The notes beneath the pieces were generated by a model. The model ran no database searches and was not told the origin of the DNA. It was given only the letters and a program-made list of their open reading frames with translations. Of a stretch of DNA of 64,000 nt, positions 22,174 to 30,312 are shown piece after piece (position 1 is the stretch's first letter; each line of letters starts with the position of its first letter). The stretch comes from Paenibacillus lutimineralis (lineage in GTDB: Bacteria > Bacillota > Bacilli > Paenibacillales > Paenibacillaceae), in NCBI RefSeq assembly GCF_003991425.1, contig NZ_CP034346.1:967501-1031500 (forward strand). Direction: 5' to 3'. Both the position numbers and the translations under genes were made by a program.

Positions 22174-22216
22174 AAAAACGAACATTATTATACAGTGTTT
22201 TTATATTGTTCGTGTT
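22174..22216 (+). promoter_or_regulatory. PurR operator (PurBox pair) of the pur operon
   Basis: The first box AAAAACGAACATTA (22174-22187) is matched on the other strand by an ACGAACAAT-type box (22203-22216), with about 15 bp between. This fits the Bacillus PurBox layout (CGAAC-centred inverted repeats 16-17 bp apart). PurR binds such pairs and is displaced by PRPP. The pair ends just before the -35 hexamer. Confidence 0.75.
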
Positions 22217-22220
22217 TTAG

Positions 22221-22250
22221 TTGACATATGATAGGAGGGATTGTTAAACT
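22221..22250 (+). promoter_or_regulatory. Promoter of the pur operon
   Basis: TTGACA (22221-22226), an 18-bp spacer, then TAAACT (22245-22250), directly after the PurBoxes and about 90 bp before the aptamer. Confidence 0.7.
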
Positions 22251-22340
22251 AGACATAGAGAGCAGGTAATTTGCTCATAGAATGTTCATATCATAAGCTT
22301 TGTTGAACAAGCTTTTTTCTAATAAATTTTGTGGAATAAT

Positions 22341-22411
22341 TGCTCGTATAACCTTGGGAATATGGCCCGGGAGTCTCTACCCGATTACCTTAAATAGTCG
22401 GACTACGAGTG
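22341..22411 (+). ncRNA. Purine riboswitch aptamer, guanine class
   Basis: P1 pairs CTCGTA (22343-22348) with TACGAG (22404-22409). Conserved loops are present: CTTGGGAATATGGCCCGGG for P2 and its loop, GTCTCTACCCGAT leading into P3, and CCTTAAATAGTCGG. The 3' junction reads GGACTACGAG; the base that decides specificity (position 74 in xpt numbering) is C, so the ligand should be guanine or hypoxanthine rather than adenine. The antiterminator strand lies unusually far downstream (22645-22663). Confidence 0.92.
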
Positions 22412-22668
22412 AATACGTCATTAGGATAGGTCATACCATTCTCCTTACGGATCATTGGAACAACGACATGCGGATGCTGCGAGTTTGGCTTAAGTGAAGG
22501 CCAGCATGCATGGGTTAATGAAGATTGGACGAAGCCCGGATGGGGAGTCGTCCACGGTGTGGCGCAGCCTGAGACGAAGATAGCCGCATTAATCATTCAT
22601 GAAGCCGATCGTTCTGTTCCCGTTGGTTGCAAAAGGGCGAGGCGCGTATTCACTTTTGGTCCGGATTT

Positions 22669-22712
22669 CTGGAAATACTTTGTTATTTCTCGGAGTTTCC
22701 AGGACTTTTTTT
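22669..22712 (+). terminator. Riboswitch-controlled terminator of the pur leader
   Basis: CTGGAAA (22669-22675) pairs with TTTCCAG (22696-22702), outer bases GTC/GAC can extend the stem, and seven T follow. Its 5' flank overlaps the sequence 22645-22663 that can pair with the aptamer's 3' strand, so the two structures exclude each other. Confidence 0.75.
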
Positions 22713-22840
22713 GTTTCTTCTACCTTCTACATCAACGAAATGACACAACGTTATTTTCACAGCCTTTTAATCATTAATTCACTTCAATAGCAATACTCAG
22801 TTTCGTAATTATACTTTTACTTAAGAAAGTAGGTTGAAGA

Positions 22841-23344
22841 ATGTCAGCACAGGTTGCAGTGATCATGGGCAGCAAATCGGATTGGGACACGATGTCTCAT
22901 GCTTGCGTCATTCTTGAGGAGCTTGGGATTCCGTATGAGAAGAAGGTTGTCTCCGCTCATCGTACTCCGGACTTGATGTTTGAATTCGCAGAGCAGGCAG
23001 CAGAGCGCGGTATTAAGGTTATTATTGCTGGTGCAGGCGGTGCGGCTCACTTGCCAGGCATGGTTGCCGCGAAGACGACCCTTCCTGTCATTGGCGTTCC
23101 GGTCAAATCCGCTGCGCTTAACGGACTTGATTCACTGTTGTCCATCGTACAAATGCCTGGTGGCATTCCTGTAGCAACGGTTGCGATCGGCAAGGCGGGA
23201 GCTACCAATGCTGGCCTGCTGGCTGCGCAAATCCTTGGCGCGTTTGATCCTGAGTTAGCGCAGCGTCTGGAGCTGCGTCGTACAGCATTACGTGATGCGG
23301 TCATTGAGACAAGCGATGATCTGGTGTTGGAGGAACAACAATAA
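22841..23344 (+). CDS. purE: N5-carboxyaminoimidazole ribonucleotide mutase
   Basis: A 167-residue class I PurE that moves the carboxyl group of N5-CAIR to give CAIR in IMP synthesis. It starts [20 protein letters not shown], with the nucleotide-binding GSKSDW motif. The catalytic His lies in VSAHRTPD, and [15 protein letters not shown] is the conserved substrate loop. The ATG follows AGTAGGTTGAAG. It is the first gene of the operon, 128 bp after the leader terminator. Its stop overlaps the purK start by one base (TAATG), indicating translational coupling. Confidence 0.96.
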
Positions 23345-24618
23345 TGGATAAAATGATCTCGGAGCGTAAGGCTGTCACAGGACTTGAGACGGTACGGATT
23401 ATTCGGCCAGGCGCGACCATCGGCGTCCTTGGCGGAGGTCAGCTTGGAAGGATGATGGCGCTCGCCGGAAGTAATCTGGGCTATCGCTTCATCGCGCTTG
23501 ATCCGACACCTGCTGCGCCATGTGGTCAGGTTGCCGAGCAGATCGTAGCTGCTTACAGCGACAAGGAAGCGGCGAAGTTACTTGCTGAACGATCGGATGT
23601 CATTACTTATGAATTTGAGAATGTCGATGCAGAGGTGGCAGCCCTGCTTGAGGAGCAATCCTATGTGCCGCAAGGAAGTCGCCTACTGTACACCACGCAG
23701 CATCGTCTGCGGGAGAAGAAGGCGGTGGAAGCTGCGGGCGTACGCGTGGCCCCCTACGCGGAGATCGGCAGTGAAGATGAACTGAGGGCGGCTATAGCAA
23801 GGCTCGGATTACCGAGTGTTCTGAAGACGGCGACCGGAGGCTATGACGGCAAAGGGCAGTGGGTAATCCGTTCGGAAGAGGAAATTGCATTGGCCTATAA
23901 GGAGTTAAGTAAGGCTGGTACGGAACTCATACTGGAGCAATTCATCTCCTTTGAGAAGGAATTGTCCGTCATTGCTGCACGCAGTCCACGTGGGGAGATC
24001 AAGACATTTCCTGTTGCCGAGAACATTCACGTCGATAATATCCTGCATGCATCGATTATTCCAGCTCGGGTAGCCGAGTCAATCCAGCGTGATGCGGAGC
24101 GGCTTGCCGCTCGTATCGCCGAATCGATGGGTGCGGTCGGATTACTTGCCGTGGAGATGTTCCTGACGAAGGACGGCGAGCTGTTCGTTAACGAACTTGC
24201 CCCGCGACCTCATAATTCTGGACATTACACGATGGAAGCCTGCAATACCTCGCAGTTCGAGCAGCATGTCCGGGCGATATGCAATCTTCCGCTCGGCGAT
24301 CCTTCGCTGCGAACACCTGTCGTAATGGTGAACATACTTGGAGAGCATATAGATAAGGTTGTACAGGCGATGACAACGGATCAGTGGCATAGGGATCTGT
24401 CGAACTCCGAAGACCAGGATGGACAGGAACAGCCAGACGAGCAGTTGGCTTCGGGGAGCCAGCCTGGATTTGCCGTCATTCCGAAAGTACACTTATATGG
24501 AAAGAGCGGTTCGGTACCTAAACGGAAGATGGGGCATATCAATTTGCTCTGTGAAGAGGTATCGGACGGACTCGATTGGATAAAGAAAACCAAAATATGG
24601 AGGAATCAACATTCATGA
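23344..24618 (+). CDS. purK: N5-carboxyaminoimidazole ribonucleotide synthase
   Basis: An ATP-grasp enzyme (424 residues) that carboxylates AIR with ATP and bicarbonate to N5-[22 protein letters not shown] opens the N-terminal domain, [12 protein letters not shown] is the ATP-grasp loop, and [20 protein letters not shown] is the metal and substrate motif. It is about 40 residues longer than many PurK proteins. The excess is a short N-terminal extension and an acidic Gln/Glu/Ser insertion near residues 350-375. Its last codon overlaps purB (ATGA). Confidence 0.95.
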
Positions 24619-25916
24619 TTGAACGTTATAGTCGACCGGAAATGAGAGCGATCTGGACGGAGGAAAATAAATTCAAGGCATGGCTGGAGGTTGAGCTGTG
24701 CGCTTGTGAAGCTTGGTCGGAGCTAGGGATTATTCCTAAGGAAGATGTTGACCTGCTGCGGAAGAACGCTTCGTTTGATATGGACCGGATCTATGAAATT
24801 GAACAGGAGACGCGTCATGACGTTATTGCTTTTACACGGGCTGTATCTGAGACATTAGGTGCAGAGCGTAAATGGGTTCATTATGGTCTGACCTCGACCG
24901 ACGTCGTTGACACAGCTCTTGGTTATTTGCTGAAGCAGGCTAATGAAATCCTAGAACGGGATATTATCAATTTTATTGAAATTTTGCGTGATAAGGCGCT
25001 GGCCTATAAAGATACCCCGATGATGGGGCGGACGCATGGGGTACATGCCGAACCGACTACCTTCGGATTAAAAATGGCGCTCTGGCACGAAGAGATGAAG
25101 CGCAACCTGGATCGTTTCCGCCACGCGGCAGACAATGTGCAATACGGTAAAATCTCCGGAGCTGTCGGAACGTACGCCAATATCGATCCTACGGTTGAAC
25201 AATTCGTCTGCAAGAAGCTCGGCACGAAGGCAGCTCCAATCTCGACACAGACACTGCAACGCGACCGTCATGCTGAATATATGGCGACGCTGGCTCTAAT
25301 CGCTACTTCGCTCGACAAGTTCGCTACCGAGATCCGCGCATTGCAGAAGAGTGAATTCCGTGAGGTGGAGGAAGCCTTCGCCAAAGGGCAAAAGGGCTCC
25401 TCAGCGATGCCACATAAGCGCAATCCGATCGGTTGCGAGAATATTTCTGGTTTGTCTCGTGTCATCCGTGGTCATATGATCTCTGCTTATGAGAATGTGA
25501 CACTTTGGCATGAGCGCGACATTTCGCATTCCTCAGTCGAGCGGGTCATTCTCCCGGATGCAACGATGCTGCTCAATTACATGTTGAATCGCTTCGGTAA
25601 TATCGTGAAGAATCTAACGGTATTCCCTGAGAATATGAAGCGCAATATGGAGCGCACTTACGGCGTGCCGTTCTCTGGCCGCGTGATGACGAAGCTTATT
25701 GATAAAGGCTTCAGCCGTGAACAAGCTTATGATACAGTGCAGCCTCGGGCGATGCAGGCTTGGGAGACGCAACGTCATTTCCGTGACATTATCGAAGAGA
25801 CGCCGGAGATTACAGCGGTGTTAAGCAAAGAAGAAATTGAGGATGCGTTCAATCCAGCTTGGCATTTGAAGCATGTGGATACCATCTTCCACAAGCTCGG
25901 ATTGATCGAAGGATAA
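24615..25916 (+). CDS. purB: Adenylosuccinate lyase
   Basis: A 433-residue lyase acting twice in purine synthesis: SAICAR to AICAR, and adenylosuccinate to AMP. The family signature is [11 protein letters not shown]. The His in [14 protein letters not shown] and the Thr/Ser of [11 protein letters not shown] are also conserved. I chose the ATG at 24615, which overlaps the purK stop by four bases and gives the standard N-terminus [20 protein letters not shown]; an upstream in-frame ATG would add 13 residues inside purK. Length fits the Bacillus enzyme. Confidence 0.96.
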
Positions 25917-26018
25917 GAGGAGTTCATCGCCTCTTATGAGGCTTAAACGGCAGCGCCGCTTGGCTATAATTGTTGAATTAAGGGCAGGCGGCGCGCGCCA
26001 CTAAGGAGGAAAGTGATT

Positions 26019-26915
26019 ATGTCAGCAAGAGCCATTTCTACGGCAGAGGGTATCGTGAACGCCCCGCTGCTGTACAAAGGTAAGGTCCGCGAATTGTATG
26101 ATCTTGGTGAACACTACTTAATCGTCGTGACCGACCGGATTTCCGCTTTTGACTACGTGCTTGAACCGGCCGTGCCTGATAAAGGCAATGTTCTGAATCG
26201 GCTAAGCGCCTTTTGGTTTGAGCAGACTGCAGAACTGATGGAGAATCATGTCGTGCATACCGATGTCGAATTGCTTGGCGATGTGATCAGCGAAGAGAAT
26301 AAGGACGTTCTGCGTAAAAGAGTGATGGTTACCCGCAAGGCGCAGCGCATCGATATCGAATGTGTGGTGCGTGGTTATATCACCGGCGGAGGCTGGCGGC
26401 AATATCAGAAAAACGGTGAGATCAACGGCATTTCGCTTCCTGAAGGCTTGCGGATGAATGATCAATTACCGGAGCCGATCTTTACTCCTGCAGCCAAAAA
26501 CGATGTTGGCCACGATGAGGATATCTCGTTCGAAGTGATGGCGGAGAAGGTCGGAGTCGATCTGGCTGAGCAACTACGCAACTGTAGTCTTGAACTGTAT
26601 GCCTTCGCTCGTGATTTCTGTGAGAAGCGCGATATCATTCTTGCGGATTGCAAGCTTGAATTTGGCCTGATCGACGGCAAGCTGATTCTGATTGACGAGA
26701 TATTCACTCCAGATGCATCTCGTTTCTGGGCCAAAGAGAAATATGCGCTGGGCGTAGATATTGACAGTATGGATAAAGAACCGGTACGCAATTATCTGGC
26801 CCATTCCGACTGGGATAAGAACAGTCAGCCTGATCCGCTGCCGACGCCTGTAGTCGATGAGACTTCACACCGCTATCGTGATATTTACTCTCGTATTTCC
26901 GGACAGCAGCTATAA
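26019..26915 (+). CDS. purC: SAICAR synthase, long form
   Basis: Phosphoribosylaminoimidazole-succinocarboxamide synthase (298 residues), which joins CAIR and aspartate with ATP. Motifs are LLYKGKVRELYDLG at the N-terminus, VTDRISAFDYVL, the substrate motif VVRGYITGGGWRQYQ and LIDEIFTPDASRFW. Bacillus and E. coli PurC have about 240 residues; this longer type resembles the form in yeast Ade1 and some bacteria. The ATG follows AAGGAGG by 9 bp. It starts 102 bp after purB. Confidence 0.95.
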   Translation: MSARAISTAEGIVNAPLLYKGKVRELYDLGEHYLIVVTDRISAFDYVLEPAVPDKGNVLNRLSAFWFEQTAELMENHVVHTDVELLGDVISEENKDVLRKRVMVTRKAQRIDIECVVRGYITGGGWRQYQKNGEINGISLPEGLRMNDQLPEPIFTPAAKNDVGHDEDISFEVMAEKVGVDLAEQLRNCSLELYAFARDFCEKRDIILADCKLEFGLIDGKLILIDEIFTPDASRFWAKEKYALGVDIDSMDKEPVRNYLAHSDWDKNSQPDPLPTPVVDETSHRYRDIYSRISGQQL

Positions 26916-27038
26916 AACTGCTATTTTCCGCAATGATATTCTAATAGACAGTTTTCTTGGCATTTACACTAGATTTTCTATCATCCTGTGTTTCAAGCTT
27001 TTGTATTCATAGAGTTGGAAAGTGTACTAATAGTGCGT

Positions 27039-27099
27039 GTTCAAAAAGCCCGGTTTTCAGCAACGAGAAGGTTGGATGAAGCTAGTTTTTGAACTACCT
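27039..27099 (+). repeat. Short inverted-terminal repeat element (copy A)
   Basis: It begins GTTCAAAAAGCCCGGTTTTC, continues with AACGAGAAGGTTGGATGAAG, and ends CTAGTTTTTGAACTACCT. It is a minimal version of the elements at 32022 and 32319, lacking their centre, and lies between purC and purS. Confidence 0.7.
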
Positions 27100-27140
27100 T
27101 ATACCGCGGCAGCGCCGCAATACAAACCCTTAGGAGGAAC

Positions 27141-27395
27141 ATGAGAGATATGTTGAAAGCGAAGGTCTATGTCACCATTAAACAAAGCGTACTTGATCCG
27201 CAGGGAGTTGCCGTACAAGGCGCACTGCATTCAATGGGATTCAACGAAGTAGGAAGCGTTCGTATCGGTAAGTATATGGAGCTTCAACTCGACACAGATG
27301 ACCGCTTCGAGGCCGAGGCTCGTATCAAGGCAATGTGTGAGAAGCTTTTGGCGAATACAGTCGTAGAAGACTACCGCTTTGAATTGGAGGGCTAA
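27141..27395 (+). CDS. purS: FGAM synthase subunit PurS
   Basis: A small (84-residue) subunit of formylglycinamidine ribonucleotide synthase. It bridges PurQ and PurL in Gram-positive bacteria and helps ammonia transfer. It contains KVYVTIKQSVLDPQGVAVQG, VRIGKYMEL and ANTVVEDYRFELE, all characteristic. Two starts are possible: ATG 27141, only 3 bp after AGGAGG, and ATG 27150, 12 bp after it. The second matches the family N-terminus better. It ends 3 bp before purQ. Confidence 0.95.
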   Translation: MRDMLKAKVYVTIKQSVLDPQGVAVQGALHSMGFNEVGSVRIGKYMELQLDTDDRFEAEARIKAMCEKLLANTVVEDYRFELEG

Positions 27396-27398
27396 TTC

Positions 27399-28088
27399 AT
27401 GAAATTCGCAGTACTCGTATTTCCCGGTTCCAACTGTGACATCGACTGTTATAAAGCGGTGGAGGATACATTAGGCGAACCTGTTGATTATGTTTGGCAT
27501 ACAGCCACGGATTTATCCGCCTATGATTGTATCTTAGTTCCGGGCGGTTTCTCATATGGTGATTATCTTCGCTGCGGCGCAATTTCTCGCTTTGCTCCGG
27601 TTATGGCTGAGGTAGCCAAAGCGGCAGAGGCAGGCAAGTTTGTACTCGGCATTTGCAACGGATTTCAAATTTTGACGGAGGCAGGCCTGTTGCCAGGAAC
27701 ACTGCGCCGCAATATGTCACTGAAGTTCCGCTGTCATGACACGCTTCTGCGGGTTGAGAACAACAGCAATCCGTTCACGAGCGAATATGCACTTGGCGAG
27801 GAGATTAACATTCCGATCGCTCATGGGGAAGGCAACTATTACTGTGATGAGGCGACTCTTGCGCAACTGCAGGCGAACGGACAAATTATTTTCCGTTATG
27901 TTAATAATCCGAATGGGTCGCTTGACGATATCGCCGGTATTTCCAATGAACGCGGTAATGTGGTCGGCATGATGCCGCATCCGGAGCGTGCGGTTAGCAG
28001 TCTGCTTGGATCAGAGGATGGTAAGAAAATGTTCACATCGATTTTGAAGACTTGGAGGGATCAGCATGAGTCAGCAAGTGTCCGCTAA
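27399..28088 (+). CDS. purQ: FGAM synthase, glutaminase subunit
   Basis: A 229-residue class I glutamine amidotransferase that supplies ammonia to PurL. The nucleophile Cys86 is in [11 protein letters not shown], and the catalytic His/Glu pair is in MMPHPERA near residue 195. The N-terminus [19 protein letters not shown] is standard. It overlaps the purL start by 23 bp, so translation is probably coupled. Confidence 0.96.
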
Positions 28089-30312
28089 GGAACCGAATGC
28101 AGAGCAAATTGCAGAGCAGCAAATTTATAAACAGATGGGCGTTTCGGATAGCGAGTATGGGCTGATCTGCGGATTTCTCGGCCGTAAACCGAACTATACT
28201 GAGATTGGCGTATTCAGCGTCATGTGGTCTGAGCACTGCGCATACAAGAACTCCAAGCCGCTTCTGAGAAGATTTCCAACTAGCGGCCCGCGCGTATTGA
28301 TGGGTCCAGGTGAAGGTGCAGGTATCGTCGATATCGGTGACAATCAGGCGGTTGTATTCAAAATTGAAAGTCATAACCACCCTTCAGCTGTAGAGCCTTA
28401 TCAAGGTGCGGCTACCGGGGTGGGCGGCATTATTCGCGATATTTTCTCTATGGGTGCAAGACCGATTGCTTCTCTGAACTCTCTGCGTTTCGGCAAGCTG
28501 GAGAGCGACCGGGTTAAATATTTGTTCGAGCATGTGGTAGCTGGAATTGCTGGTTACGGCAACTGTATCGGTATTCCGACGGTTGGCGGCGAGGTTGTCT
28601 TCGACGAATCTTATGACGGCAATCCGCTTGTCAATGCGATGTGTGTCGGTCTAATCGATCATGATAAAATCCAGCGCGGTGTGGCGAAGGGGGTTGGTAA
28701 CCCGGTGTTCTATGTGGGGCCGCCAACAGGTCGCGACGGTATCCATGGTGCGACCTTCGCATCCGAGGAACTGACTGAGGAGTCTGAAGCGAAGCGTACG
28801 GCTGTACAGGTTGGCGATCCATTCATGGAGAAGCTTGTGATGGAAGCTTGTCTGGAACTGATCGATACGGGCATCGTACTTGGTATTCAGGATATGGGCG
28901 CAGCGGGCCTTACCTGCTCCAGTGCGGAAATGGCTAGTAAAGCCGGCAACGGTCTGGAGCTATATCTGGACGAAGTTCCACAACGCGAGGAAGGCATGAC
29001 GGCTTATGAAATGATGCTCTCGGAGTCGCAGGAACGGATGTTGTTCGTGGTAGAGCCAAAGGATGAAGCTCAGGCACGGGAGATTTTTGAACGTTGGGGC
29101 GTGATTTGCTCCAAGGTTGGTAAAGTAACAGATGATGGGCGCTTGAAACTGATTCATCATGGCGAAGTTGTTGGCGATATGCCGGTGACAGCACTCGTTG
29201 ATGAATGTCCTATTTACAACAAGCCATCCAGCGTACCAGCTTACTATGAAGAGAATGCCAATATAGATACTTTAAGATATGAAGAAGTTCGTGATTTGAA
29301 CGGTGCATTGGATAAAGTGTTATCTTCGCCTTCTGTATCCAGCAAGGCATGGGTTTACAACCAATACGACTACATGGTGCGTACAAGCACCGCGGTTCGT
29401 CCGGGTTCAGACGCCGCTGTCGTAACGGTGCATGGAACGCGCAAGGCACTGGCGATGACGACGGACTGTAACGGACGGTTCGTGTATCTTGATCCTGAGA
29501 TCGGCGGCAAGATCGCAGTGAGTGAAGCAGCGCGTAATATCGTCTGCTCTGGCGCAGAGCCGCTGGCGATTACGGATAACCTGAACTTCGGCAGCCCGGA
29601 GAAGCCGGATATTTTCTGGCAGATGGAGAAATCGGTTGACGGGATGGCGGAAGCCTGCCGTGTACTGGATACTCCGGTAATCGGCGGTAATGTCAGTCTC
29701 TATAACGAGAATTCCAAAGGCGCGATCTATCCGACACCGGTTGTCGGCATGGTCGGTCTGGTACATGATACGGATCATATTACGACGCAAGGCTTCAAAA
29801 ATGAGGGAGATGCAATTCTCCTGCTTGGTGACACTTATGGTGAACTGGGCGGCAGTGAGTTCCAGGCTGTTGTTCATGGCGTTACTGAAGGGCGTCCACC
29901 GCAGCTTGATTTGAACAAGGAAAAATCGCTTCTTAACGCGGTTCTTAAAGCAATTCAGAGCGGACTCGTTCAATCGGCGCATGACCTTTCTGAAGGCGGC
30001 CTTGCTGTCGCTCTGGCAGAATCCTGCATCAGCGGTGGCTTGGGAGCTCATGTTGAGCTGCCTACATCGGATTTGCGTGCGGACATCGCTTTGTTCAGTG
30101 AATCCCAATCACGTATCCTGCTCTCGGCTTCGCCAAATCATGCGGATGAACTTGTGCAGTTGATCGCGCAGCATGGAGTACCAGTGCGGGTAATTGGACG
30201 CGTGGAAGGCGGGGATCTTGTCGTTCATGCGAATGGTGCTGCTGTTGTGAATAGACCTGTACAAACACTGAAGCAGGTCTGGGAGGATGTTATTCCATGT
30301 CTGATGAAATAA
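28066..30312 (+). CDS. purL: FGAM synthase, large subunit
   Basis: A 748-residue small-type PurL, the ATP-dependent synthase half that converts FGAR to FGAM with ammonia from Pur[21 protein letters not shown] holds the family's active-site His. [20 protein letters not shown] and [15 protein letters not shown] belong to the first AIR-synthase-like lobe, and [16 protein letters not shown] and [17 protein letters not shown] to the repeated lobes. Length matches the Bacillus type. Its last 16 bases overlap purF. Confidence 0.96.

What the first reader, a model, noticed from the sequence alone, without database searches (positions are those of the whole stretch)
22341..22712. Guanine riboswitch whose antiterminator lies ~230 nt from the aptamer
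The aptamer's 3' strand CGGACTACGAGTGAATACG (22399-22417) can pair with CGTATTCACTTTTGGTCCG (22645-22663): 18 of 19 positions pair, two of them G-U. The second strand runs into the 5' side of the terminator hairpin (22669-22702, T7). So ligand-bound P1 and the antiterminator exclude each other, as in known pur riboswitches, but here 227 nt of extra, partly structured RNA sits between them. Long-range antitermination raises a kinetic question: the polymerase must copy the spacer before the choice is made.
Basis: partly seen in the sequence, partly recalled or inferred. Interest (0 to 1): 0.75.

Follow-up and report, generated by a model that had tools for sequence, protein, structure and literature searches.

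The report
Guanine riboswitch with a distant antiterminator
A guanine-sensing RNA switch in front of the purine-synthesis genes of a Paenibacillus appears to make its on/off choice by pairing two RNA strands 227 bases apart; related species keep the pairing but vary the distance about thirty-fold, a natural series for testing whether such switches work against the clock.

Summary
A purine aptamer (RF00167, 85 bits) with the guanine-type C74 precedes purE-K-B-C-S-Q-L. Its 3' strand (22399-22417) pairs with 22645-22663 at 18 of 19 positions, the best partner on the window's + strand. The pairing is conserved: in 106 of 108 Paenibacillaceae purE leaders examined, the best complement of the aptamer strand anywhere in the leader lies 30-90 nt before a terminator (39.6 expected). 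Between near relatives, native strand pairs beat exchanged ones (33 against 10, p=0.0006; 13 against 1 when both spacers are >=100 nt). So this is, by mechanism, an ordinary guanine OFF switch with an unusually long spacer. The new point is clade-wide: the spacer varies from 12 to 385 nt (CV 0.61) and changed length repeatedly, while antiterminator strand to U-tract stays near 60 nt (CV 0.08-0.09). Corrections: the antiterminator excludes only the terminator's basal helix, and a residual hairpin stays 1 nt from the U-tract, so antitermination here may be leaky (one crude equilibrium score does not call the window switchable); the window's spacer is no more structured or compact than shuffled RNA. 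Whether spacer length tunes the guanine threshold or drifts is untested.

The parts
22178..22213 (+). PurR-box-like inverted repeat (ACGAAC...GTTCGT) upstream of the promoter
   Evidence: Sequence read; single exact copy in the genome; the name PurR box is recalled.
22221..22250 (+). Promoter-like -35 TTGACA (22221-22226) and -10 TAAACT (22245-22250), 18-nt spacing; start site about 22257
   Evidence: Sequence read and spacing computed; not tested.
22341..22411 (+). Guanine aptamer: P1 22341-22348/22404-22411, P2 22352-22372 (one non-standard pair at its base), P3 22381-22401, specificity C22403
   Evidence: RF00167 85.1 bits; helices from the cmscan alignment, pairs listed.
22399..22417 (+). 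Antiterminator 5' strand (base of P3, J3/1, P1 3' strand and a 6-nt toehold)
   Evidence: 18 of 19 pairs with 22645-22663; conserved in relatives.
22418..22644 (+). Spacer nested inside the antiterminator helix; single copy in the genome, homologous sequence in 3 of 394 family genomes searched (own included)
   Evidence: no other Rfam family up to E 5; MFE z -0.38 against dinucleotide shuffles.
22645..22663 (+). Antiterminator 3' strand
22659..22712 (+). Intrinsic terminator: stem 22659-22705 and T7 22706-22712; bases 22659-22663 shared with the antiterminator
   Evidence: Folds at -17.8 kcal/mol; residual hairpin 22667-22704 at -13.6 kcal/mol once the antiterminator strand is taken.
22841..23344 (+). 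purE, first gene of the controlled operon purE-purK-purB-purC-purS-purQ-purL (22841-30312)
   Evidence: ORFs; NCBIfam equivalog models over cut-off for all seven.

Best explanation
This is a transcriptional OFF guanine riboswitch controlling de novo purine synthesis by strand exchange. The aptamer folds first. RNA polymerase then copies a 227-nt spacer that folds on itself. The strand 22645-22663 emerges, anchors on the single-stranded toehold 22412-22417 and, if no guanine is bound, unzips P1 from its base up to P3. That helix holds 22659-22663, so the terminator cannot close its base next to the U-tract and transcription goes on into purE. If guanine is bound, the upper P1 and J3/1 resist invasion, 22659-22663 stay free, and the terminator closes. 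The spacer is a nested insert that barely affects the equilibrium; its length is loosely constrained. What selection holds is the pairing and the roughly 60-nt step from antiterminator strand to U-tract. Shown by computation: aptamer, pairing, its conservation and covariation, the constant 60-nt step, the variable spacer, predicted switching of the window leader in one of two scores. Inferred: guanine as ligand in vivo, order of events, strand exchange, near-neutral spacer.
For: RF00167 match with C74. All seven downstream ORFs are pur enzymes. Best pairing partner on the window's + strand. In 106 of 108 Paenibacillaceae leaders the best complement of the aptamer strand lies 30-90 nt before a terminator, 39.6 expected, distance CV 0.08. 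Own duplex beats dinucleotide shuffles of the terminator region with z below -3 in 64 of 88 leaders. Own strands pair 5.9 kcal/mol better than strands of other leaders on average (133 leaders). Swap test on 44 disjoint nearest pairs: 33 negative, 10 positive, 1 zero; Wilcoxon 3e-5; both spacers >=100 nt: 13, 1 and 1 of 15. 86 two-sided compensated cells against 53 (sd 7.5) in shuffles, 0 of 500 as high. Partition function switches with a ligand bonus. Sequestering the antiterminator strand costs the terminator a median 11.7 kcal/mol over 107 leaders. Spacer length and the step to the U-tract are uncorrelated, r 0.002, and predicted antiterminator formation does not fall with spacer length, r 0.06. 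Long spacers (>=140 nt) need 9 changes on the purE tree, at least 5 forced by well-supported branches.
Against: In the window and its two near relatives the hairpin left when the antiterminator forms still ends 1 nt from the U-tract (window -13.6 against -18.7 kcal/mol), so antitermination may be leaky (residual gap <=2 nt in 32 of 107 leaders). A cruder equilibrium score, which counts any pairing of the terminator's 3' arm, called only 41 of 106 leaders switchable, and the window was not among them (0.68 without, 0.69 with ligand bonus, because that residual hairpin counts). In the column test, sliding the partner by +1 gave as many two-sided cells (89), though only 44.6% of cells paired against 72.1%; the number of pairs with any compensation (10 against 9.4) and of extra pair types (38 against 38.7) was not above shuffles. 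Long spacers are clustered on the tree rather than scattered (9 changes against 13.2 shuffled, 1 of 500 as low), so their length is partly inherited. No termination, probing or expression data exist here.
Confidence: 0.83

Rival explanations
1. The spacer is a timer: its length is selected to give guanine more time to bind before the antiterminator strand appears, so longer-spacer species respond to lower guanine (kinetic tuning).
For: The step after the antiterminator strand is held constant while the step before it varies 30-fold. Association-limited arithmetic gives about 2.6 s of sensing time for an 83-nt spacer and 6.1 s for 225 nt at an assumed 40 nt/s (rates assumed). Pausing and transcription intervals are reported to matter in pbuE (PMC7707468, passages) and the 2'-dG riboswitch (PMC5838219, passages).
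Against: Spacer length differs several-fold between close sisters (68, 121, 123, 123 and 385 nt in one supported clade), as drift would give too; spacer sequence is recognisable in only 3 of 394 family genomes.
Confidence: 0.22
2. The spacer carries a second regulatory element (another ligand, a protein site or a leader peptide) integrated with the guanine switch, as in guanine-PRPP tandems.
For: Tandem guanine-PRPP riboswitches exist before purine genes (PMC5912903, passages). Terminator-like hairpins occur inside 21 of 100 spacers of relatives against 9.1 expected, though several of the 21 are near-copies.
Against: No other Rfam family in 22200-22850 up to E 5 or, up to E 0.05, in 10 further loci (8 purE leaders and two other switches of this genome); in published tandems the two P1 stems are typically 5-7 nt apart. 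No reading frame is conserved among the three closest leaders, judged by eye on the translations. No terminator-like hairpin in the window's spacer.
Confidence: 0.08
3. The 22399/22645 pairing is a by-product: the terminator's 5' arm only resembles the aptamer's complement because both contain CGGAC-type sequence, and the switch works some other way.
For: The first five pairs (22399-22403) are nearly invariant, so say little about covariation.
Against: Complementarity extends over about 20 nt and compensates in the variable half, outside the invariant block.
Confidence: 0.04

Closest known systems
Bacillus subtilis yxjA guanine riboswitch (PMC9756952, abstract and passages seen)
   Same: OFF purine switch; a 'central helix' between P1 3' strand and terminator 5' strand competes with both; a stem (P4) lies between the strands.
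   Different: There the aptamer junction does not overlap the expression platform and the whole riboswitch is given as 220 nt; here the nested part alone is 227 nt and the antiterminator reaches through J3/1 into P3.
B. subtilis pbuE adenine riboswitch (PMC7707468, passages seen)
   Same: Strand exchange through P1 started from a nucleating P4/L4 stem-loop with a U-rich tract and pause site.
   Different: pbuE is an ON switch with adenine and a short P4; the window's spacer has no U-tract hairpin.
Tandem guanine-PRPP riboswitch (PMC5912903, abstract and passages seen)
   Same: Guanine aptamer before purine biosynthesis genes with extra RNA before the terminator.
   Different: No second aptamer found here; the tandem aptamers typically lie 5-7 nt apart.
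Covariation models of whole purine riboswitches (PMC13273304, abstract and passages seen)
   Same: Models that take in both the aptamer and the expression platform of purine riboswitches.
   Different: Their purine alignment was limited to 45-65 nt after the aptamer, so leaders like this one were outside it.

Membership tests
Purine riboswitch (RF00167) | Covariance-model score over the curated cut-off | tested here: met
   85.1 bits against 37
Purine riboswitch (RF00167) | Guanine-type specificity nucleotide C74 | tested here: met
   C22403 in GACUA, read from the cmscan alignment; position name recalled; U22 and U51 also present by reading
Purine riboswitch (RF00167) | Upstream of purine metabolism genes | tested here: met
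   purE, K, B, C, S, Q, L
Purine riboswitch (RF00167) | Binds guanine | not testable with these tools
   No binding data
Transcriptional OFF switch with antiterminator | Intrinsic terminator before the gene, with an alternative helix sharing aptamer and terminator strands | tested here: met
Transcriptional OFF switch with antiterminator | Antiterminator leaves no terminator-competent hairpin | tested here: inconclusive
   Residual hairpin -13.6 kcal/mol, 1 nt from T7; window not called switchable by the crude score
Transcriptional OFF switch with antiterminator | Pairing conserved with compensatory change | tested here: met
   two of the four column measures were not above shuffles
Tandem guanine-PRPP riboswitch | PRPP (ykkC 2b) aptamer directly downstream | tested here: not met
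   No second Rfam match up to E 5

The most novel reading that the evidence does not exclude
In Paenibacillaceae the pur guanine riboswitch separates two clocks: a sensing interval (aptamer to antiterminator strand) that evolution lengthens and shortens 30-fold to set the guanine threshold, and a decision interval (antiterminator strand to U-tract) fixed near 60 nt. The window's 227-nt spacer would be a slow-sensing setting that pushes a kinetically controlled switch towards equilibrium.
Probability: 0.22. Interest if true: 0.75.

Novelty: new variant of a known kind. Interest (0 to 1): 0.48.

Why it matters
Whether transcriptional riboswitches are set by binding kinetics or by equilibrium has been argued mostly from designed variants and a few natural ones (recalled; PMC7707468 and PMC5838219 are examples seen in passages). 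Here one gene in one family gives a ready natural series, with the same kind of aptamer, antiterminator and decision step but spacers of 12 to 385 nt, including close sisters at 68, 121, 123 and 385 nt. It also shows that the antiterminator can lie hundreds of nucleotides from the aptamer, so whole-riboswitch models built with a length limit after the aptamer (45-65 nt in PMC13273304) may miss members.

Tried and rejected
Spacer as mobile or repeated element: single copy in the genome, no phage-record match, recognisable only in two close relatives. Rejected. Spacer as leader peptide gene: frames not conserved, judged by eye. Rejected. Spacer as second riboswitch: no Rfam match besides RF00167 (the window leader up to E 5, 20 loci at gathering scores, 10 loci up to E 0.05). 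Spacer selected to bring its ends together: natural spacers have the same mean exterior-loop size as dinucleotide shuffles (13.0 against 13.1, 59 spacers of >=80 nt, Wilcoxon p 0.96). Rejected. Spacer strongly structured: median z -1.59 over 85 spacers, 28 below -2, 8 above 0, but the window's own is -0.38. Consensus structure of the three closest leaders: 69 pairs unchanged, 9 with one-sided compatible changes, 0 two-sided, 7 broken in at least one row; column shuffles give z -3.9 for the spacer part (one row was cut short of the terminator). Weak support only.

Errors of mine: P1 was placed two bases out (corrected); one search used wrong coordinates for one row and was not used; one search failed on a file name; the first U-run was sometimes taken for the terminator (for example L009), re-chosen. 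In one search three long-spacer leaders (L024, L031, L032) gave no support because their terminators were missed; the relaxed filter recovered them. Rows dropped: 17 of 170 leaders had no aptamer found (among them L067 with only 656 nt upstream and L110, both Paenibacillaceae by title); L063 was found by profile only and not used further; 152 leaders with the aptamer pattern collapsed to 148 distinct; L076 (P. lacisoli) was left out of the Paenibacillaceae set because its three-T terminator failed the filter, although its best complement also lies just before that hairpin; L169 has no terminator by the filter; L129 was skipped; L009 did not enter the tree. L058 (labelled Bacillus sp.) was counted as Paenibacillaceae by its place in the purE tree.

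Full report
WHAT IS THERE. A purine riboswitch aptamer lies at 22324-22425 (RF00167, 85.1 bits), the only Rfam match at gathering score in the 64 kb window. The alignment puts P1 at 22341-22348/22404-22411 and the guanine-type C at 22403. Upstream are a promoter-like -35/-10 pair (22221, 22245) and a PurR-box-like inverted repeat (22178-22213). Downstream are purE, purK, purB, purC, purS, purQ and purL, each over an NCBIfam cut-off. The strand 22399-22417 pairs with 22645-22663 at 18 of 19 positions, two of them G-U; no better partner exists on the + strand of the window.

IS IT MORE THAN CHANCE. I collected 170 purE leaders: 30 genus loci found by DNA similarity to the leader (so chosen partly for their aptamers), the best 80 of 581 named loci matched by purE, and 60 unnamed family loci that I picked across genera from the listed part of 392 genomes matched by purE alone. 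An aptamer was found in 153, including all 60 of the last set; 148 with the aptamer pattern were distinct. Searching each leader without restriction, the best complement to the aptamer's 3' strand lay 30-90 nt before a terminator in 106 of 108 Paenibacillaceae leaders, where random placement would give 39.6 (L076 not counted, see Tried and rejected). The duplex beats dinucleotide shuffles with z below -3 in 64 of 88 leaders. Native strand pairs are 5.9 kcal/mol better than cross pairs on average over 133 leaders. In 44 disjoint nearest-relative pairs with differing arms, swapping the strands costs energy in 33, gains in 10 and is neutral in 1 (sign p 0.0006, Wilcoxon 3e-5); with both spacers >=100 nt it is 13, 1 and 1. 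A column test over 86 rows gave 86 two-sided compensated cells against 53 expected (0 of 500 shuffles as high) and 72.1% paired cells against 68.6% (0 of 500). But the slid control at +1 had 89 two-sided cells (only 44.6% paired), and the numbers of compensated pairs and of extra pair types were not above shuffles. The energy-based tests carry most of the weight.

HOW FAR APART, AND WHERE. In 107 Paenibacillaceae leaders the spacer between the two strands ranges from 12 to 385 nt (median 83, CV 0.61; 37 at >=100, 16 at >=150, 9 at >=200). In 39 other Bacilli it is 27-152 (median 61; 2 at >=100). The step from antiterminator strand to U-tract is 62 nt (median) with CV 0.09 and no correlation with the spacer (r 0.002). 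Because that search was confined to 75 nt before a terminator, I repeated it without confinement: median 60, CV 0.08, range 51-80 in the 106. On a purE tree of 86 tips, spacers >=140 nt (14 tips) need 9 changes, at least 5 forced by well-supported branches; they are nevertheless clustered (shuffled labels need 13.2 on average, 1 of 500 as few as observed). One supported clade holds 68, 121, 123, 123 and 385 nt. So spacer length has changed repeatedly under a fixed switch, though the tree does not say which changes were gains.

WHAT THE SPACER IS. It is single copy, without phage-record matches, and its sequence is recognisable in only 3 of 394 family genomes, the window's own included. No conserved reading frame by eye, no second Rfam element. 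The window spacer's folding energy is ordinary for its composition (z -0.38); over 85 spacers the median is -1.59, so the family as a whole is somewhat more structured than shuffles. Spacers are no more compact than shuffled RNA. Predicted antiterminator formation does not fall with spacer length (r 0.06).

THE SWITCH. Equilibrium folding of the nascent leader shows P1 at 0.88-0.98 at six of the seven lengths tested up to 22650 (0.43 at 22500), then replaced as soon as 22645-22655 exist. At full length without ligand the antiterminator is 0.97-0.99 and the terminator base 0.01. A -9 kcal/mol bonus on the inner P1 pair (a crude stand-in for guanine) gives terminator base 0.99 and aptamer-proximal antiterminator 0.00, while the outer 11 pairs stay at 0.93. 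So ligand and antiterminator contest the upper P1 and J3/1, not the whole helix. The terminator overlaps the antiterminator only at 22659-22663. With that strand taken, the window keeps a -13.6 kcal/mol hairpin ending 1 nt from T7, whereas over 107 leaders the median residue is -8.5 kcal/mol with a 4-nt gap. The window's own antitermination may therefore be weaker than its relatives'. A second, cruder score that counts any pairing of the terminator's 3' arm called 41 of 106 leaders switchable and did not call the window (0.68 to 0.69); by the same run the antiterminator falls with ligand in 78 of 106 and the terminator rises in 61.

AGAINST WHAT IS KNOWN. The mechanism is that of the yxjA central helix with a P4 stem (PMC9756952, passages) and of pbuE-type strand exchange (PMC7707468, passages). 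The 2'-dG riboswitch work argues that metastable states must live within defined sequence intervals (PMC5838219, abstract and passages); here one interval is conserved and the other is not. Whole-riboswitch covariation models for purine limited the post-aptamer sequence to 45-65 nt (PMC13273304, passages). Searches of the held library showed no title or abstract start on long or variable spacers in Paenibacillus purE leaders; listings were capped (20 of 81; 12 of 30), and that library lacks most subscription journals.

VERDICT. Real, conserved, mechanistically familiar; the long spacer is an extreme of a variable family trait. The valuable part is the natural length series. Guanine binding, termination and any effect of spacer length remain to be measured.

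Noticed in passing
L019-L021, L023-L026, L028, L029, L031, L032, L041, L135, L137, L138, L140, L144, L146, L147, L158, L159 (spacers): Terminator- or pause-like hairpins with a U-tract sit inside the spacer, often soon after the aptamer: 21 of 100 spacers >=40 nt against 9.1 expected from shuffles, several of the 21 being near-copies. Could be pause hairpins like pbuE P4/L4, or a second terminator.
   Followed up: partly
L005 (G000:C1:919358-919474): A fifth purine aptamer of the same genome (51.9 bits) has AAC instead of GAC before UA, and its own 3' strand pairs with the sequence just before a T6, an ON-type arrangement, ahead of a membrane-protein-like ORF (by eye); compare the variant guanine aptamers reported in Paenibacillus (PMC9295807, passages).
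   Followed up: no
L004 (G000:C1:627756-627855): A purine aptamer (66.2 bits) stands directly before an ORF that reads like an FAD/NAD(P)-dependent oxidoreductase (by eye), not a usual purine gene.
   Followed up: no
window 22667-22704: When the antiterminator forms, an alternative hairpin (-13.6 kcal/mol) remains 1 nt from the U-tract, closer and stronger than the median relative.
   Followed up: partly
L031: This purE leader is 791 nt from the GACUAC strand to the start codon, with further T-runs at 734 and 750 after the riboswitch terminator.
   Followed up: no
L036 against L027 and L030: Close sisters differ by about 53-55 nt of spacer (68 against 123 and 121) while the antiterminator is kept: a natural length experiment.
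   Followed up: partly
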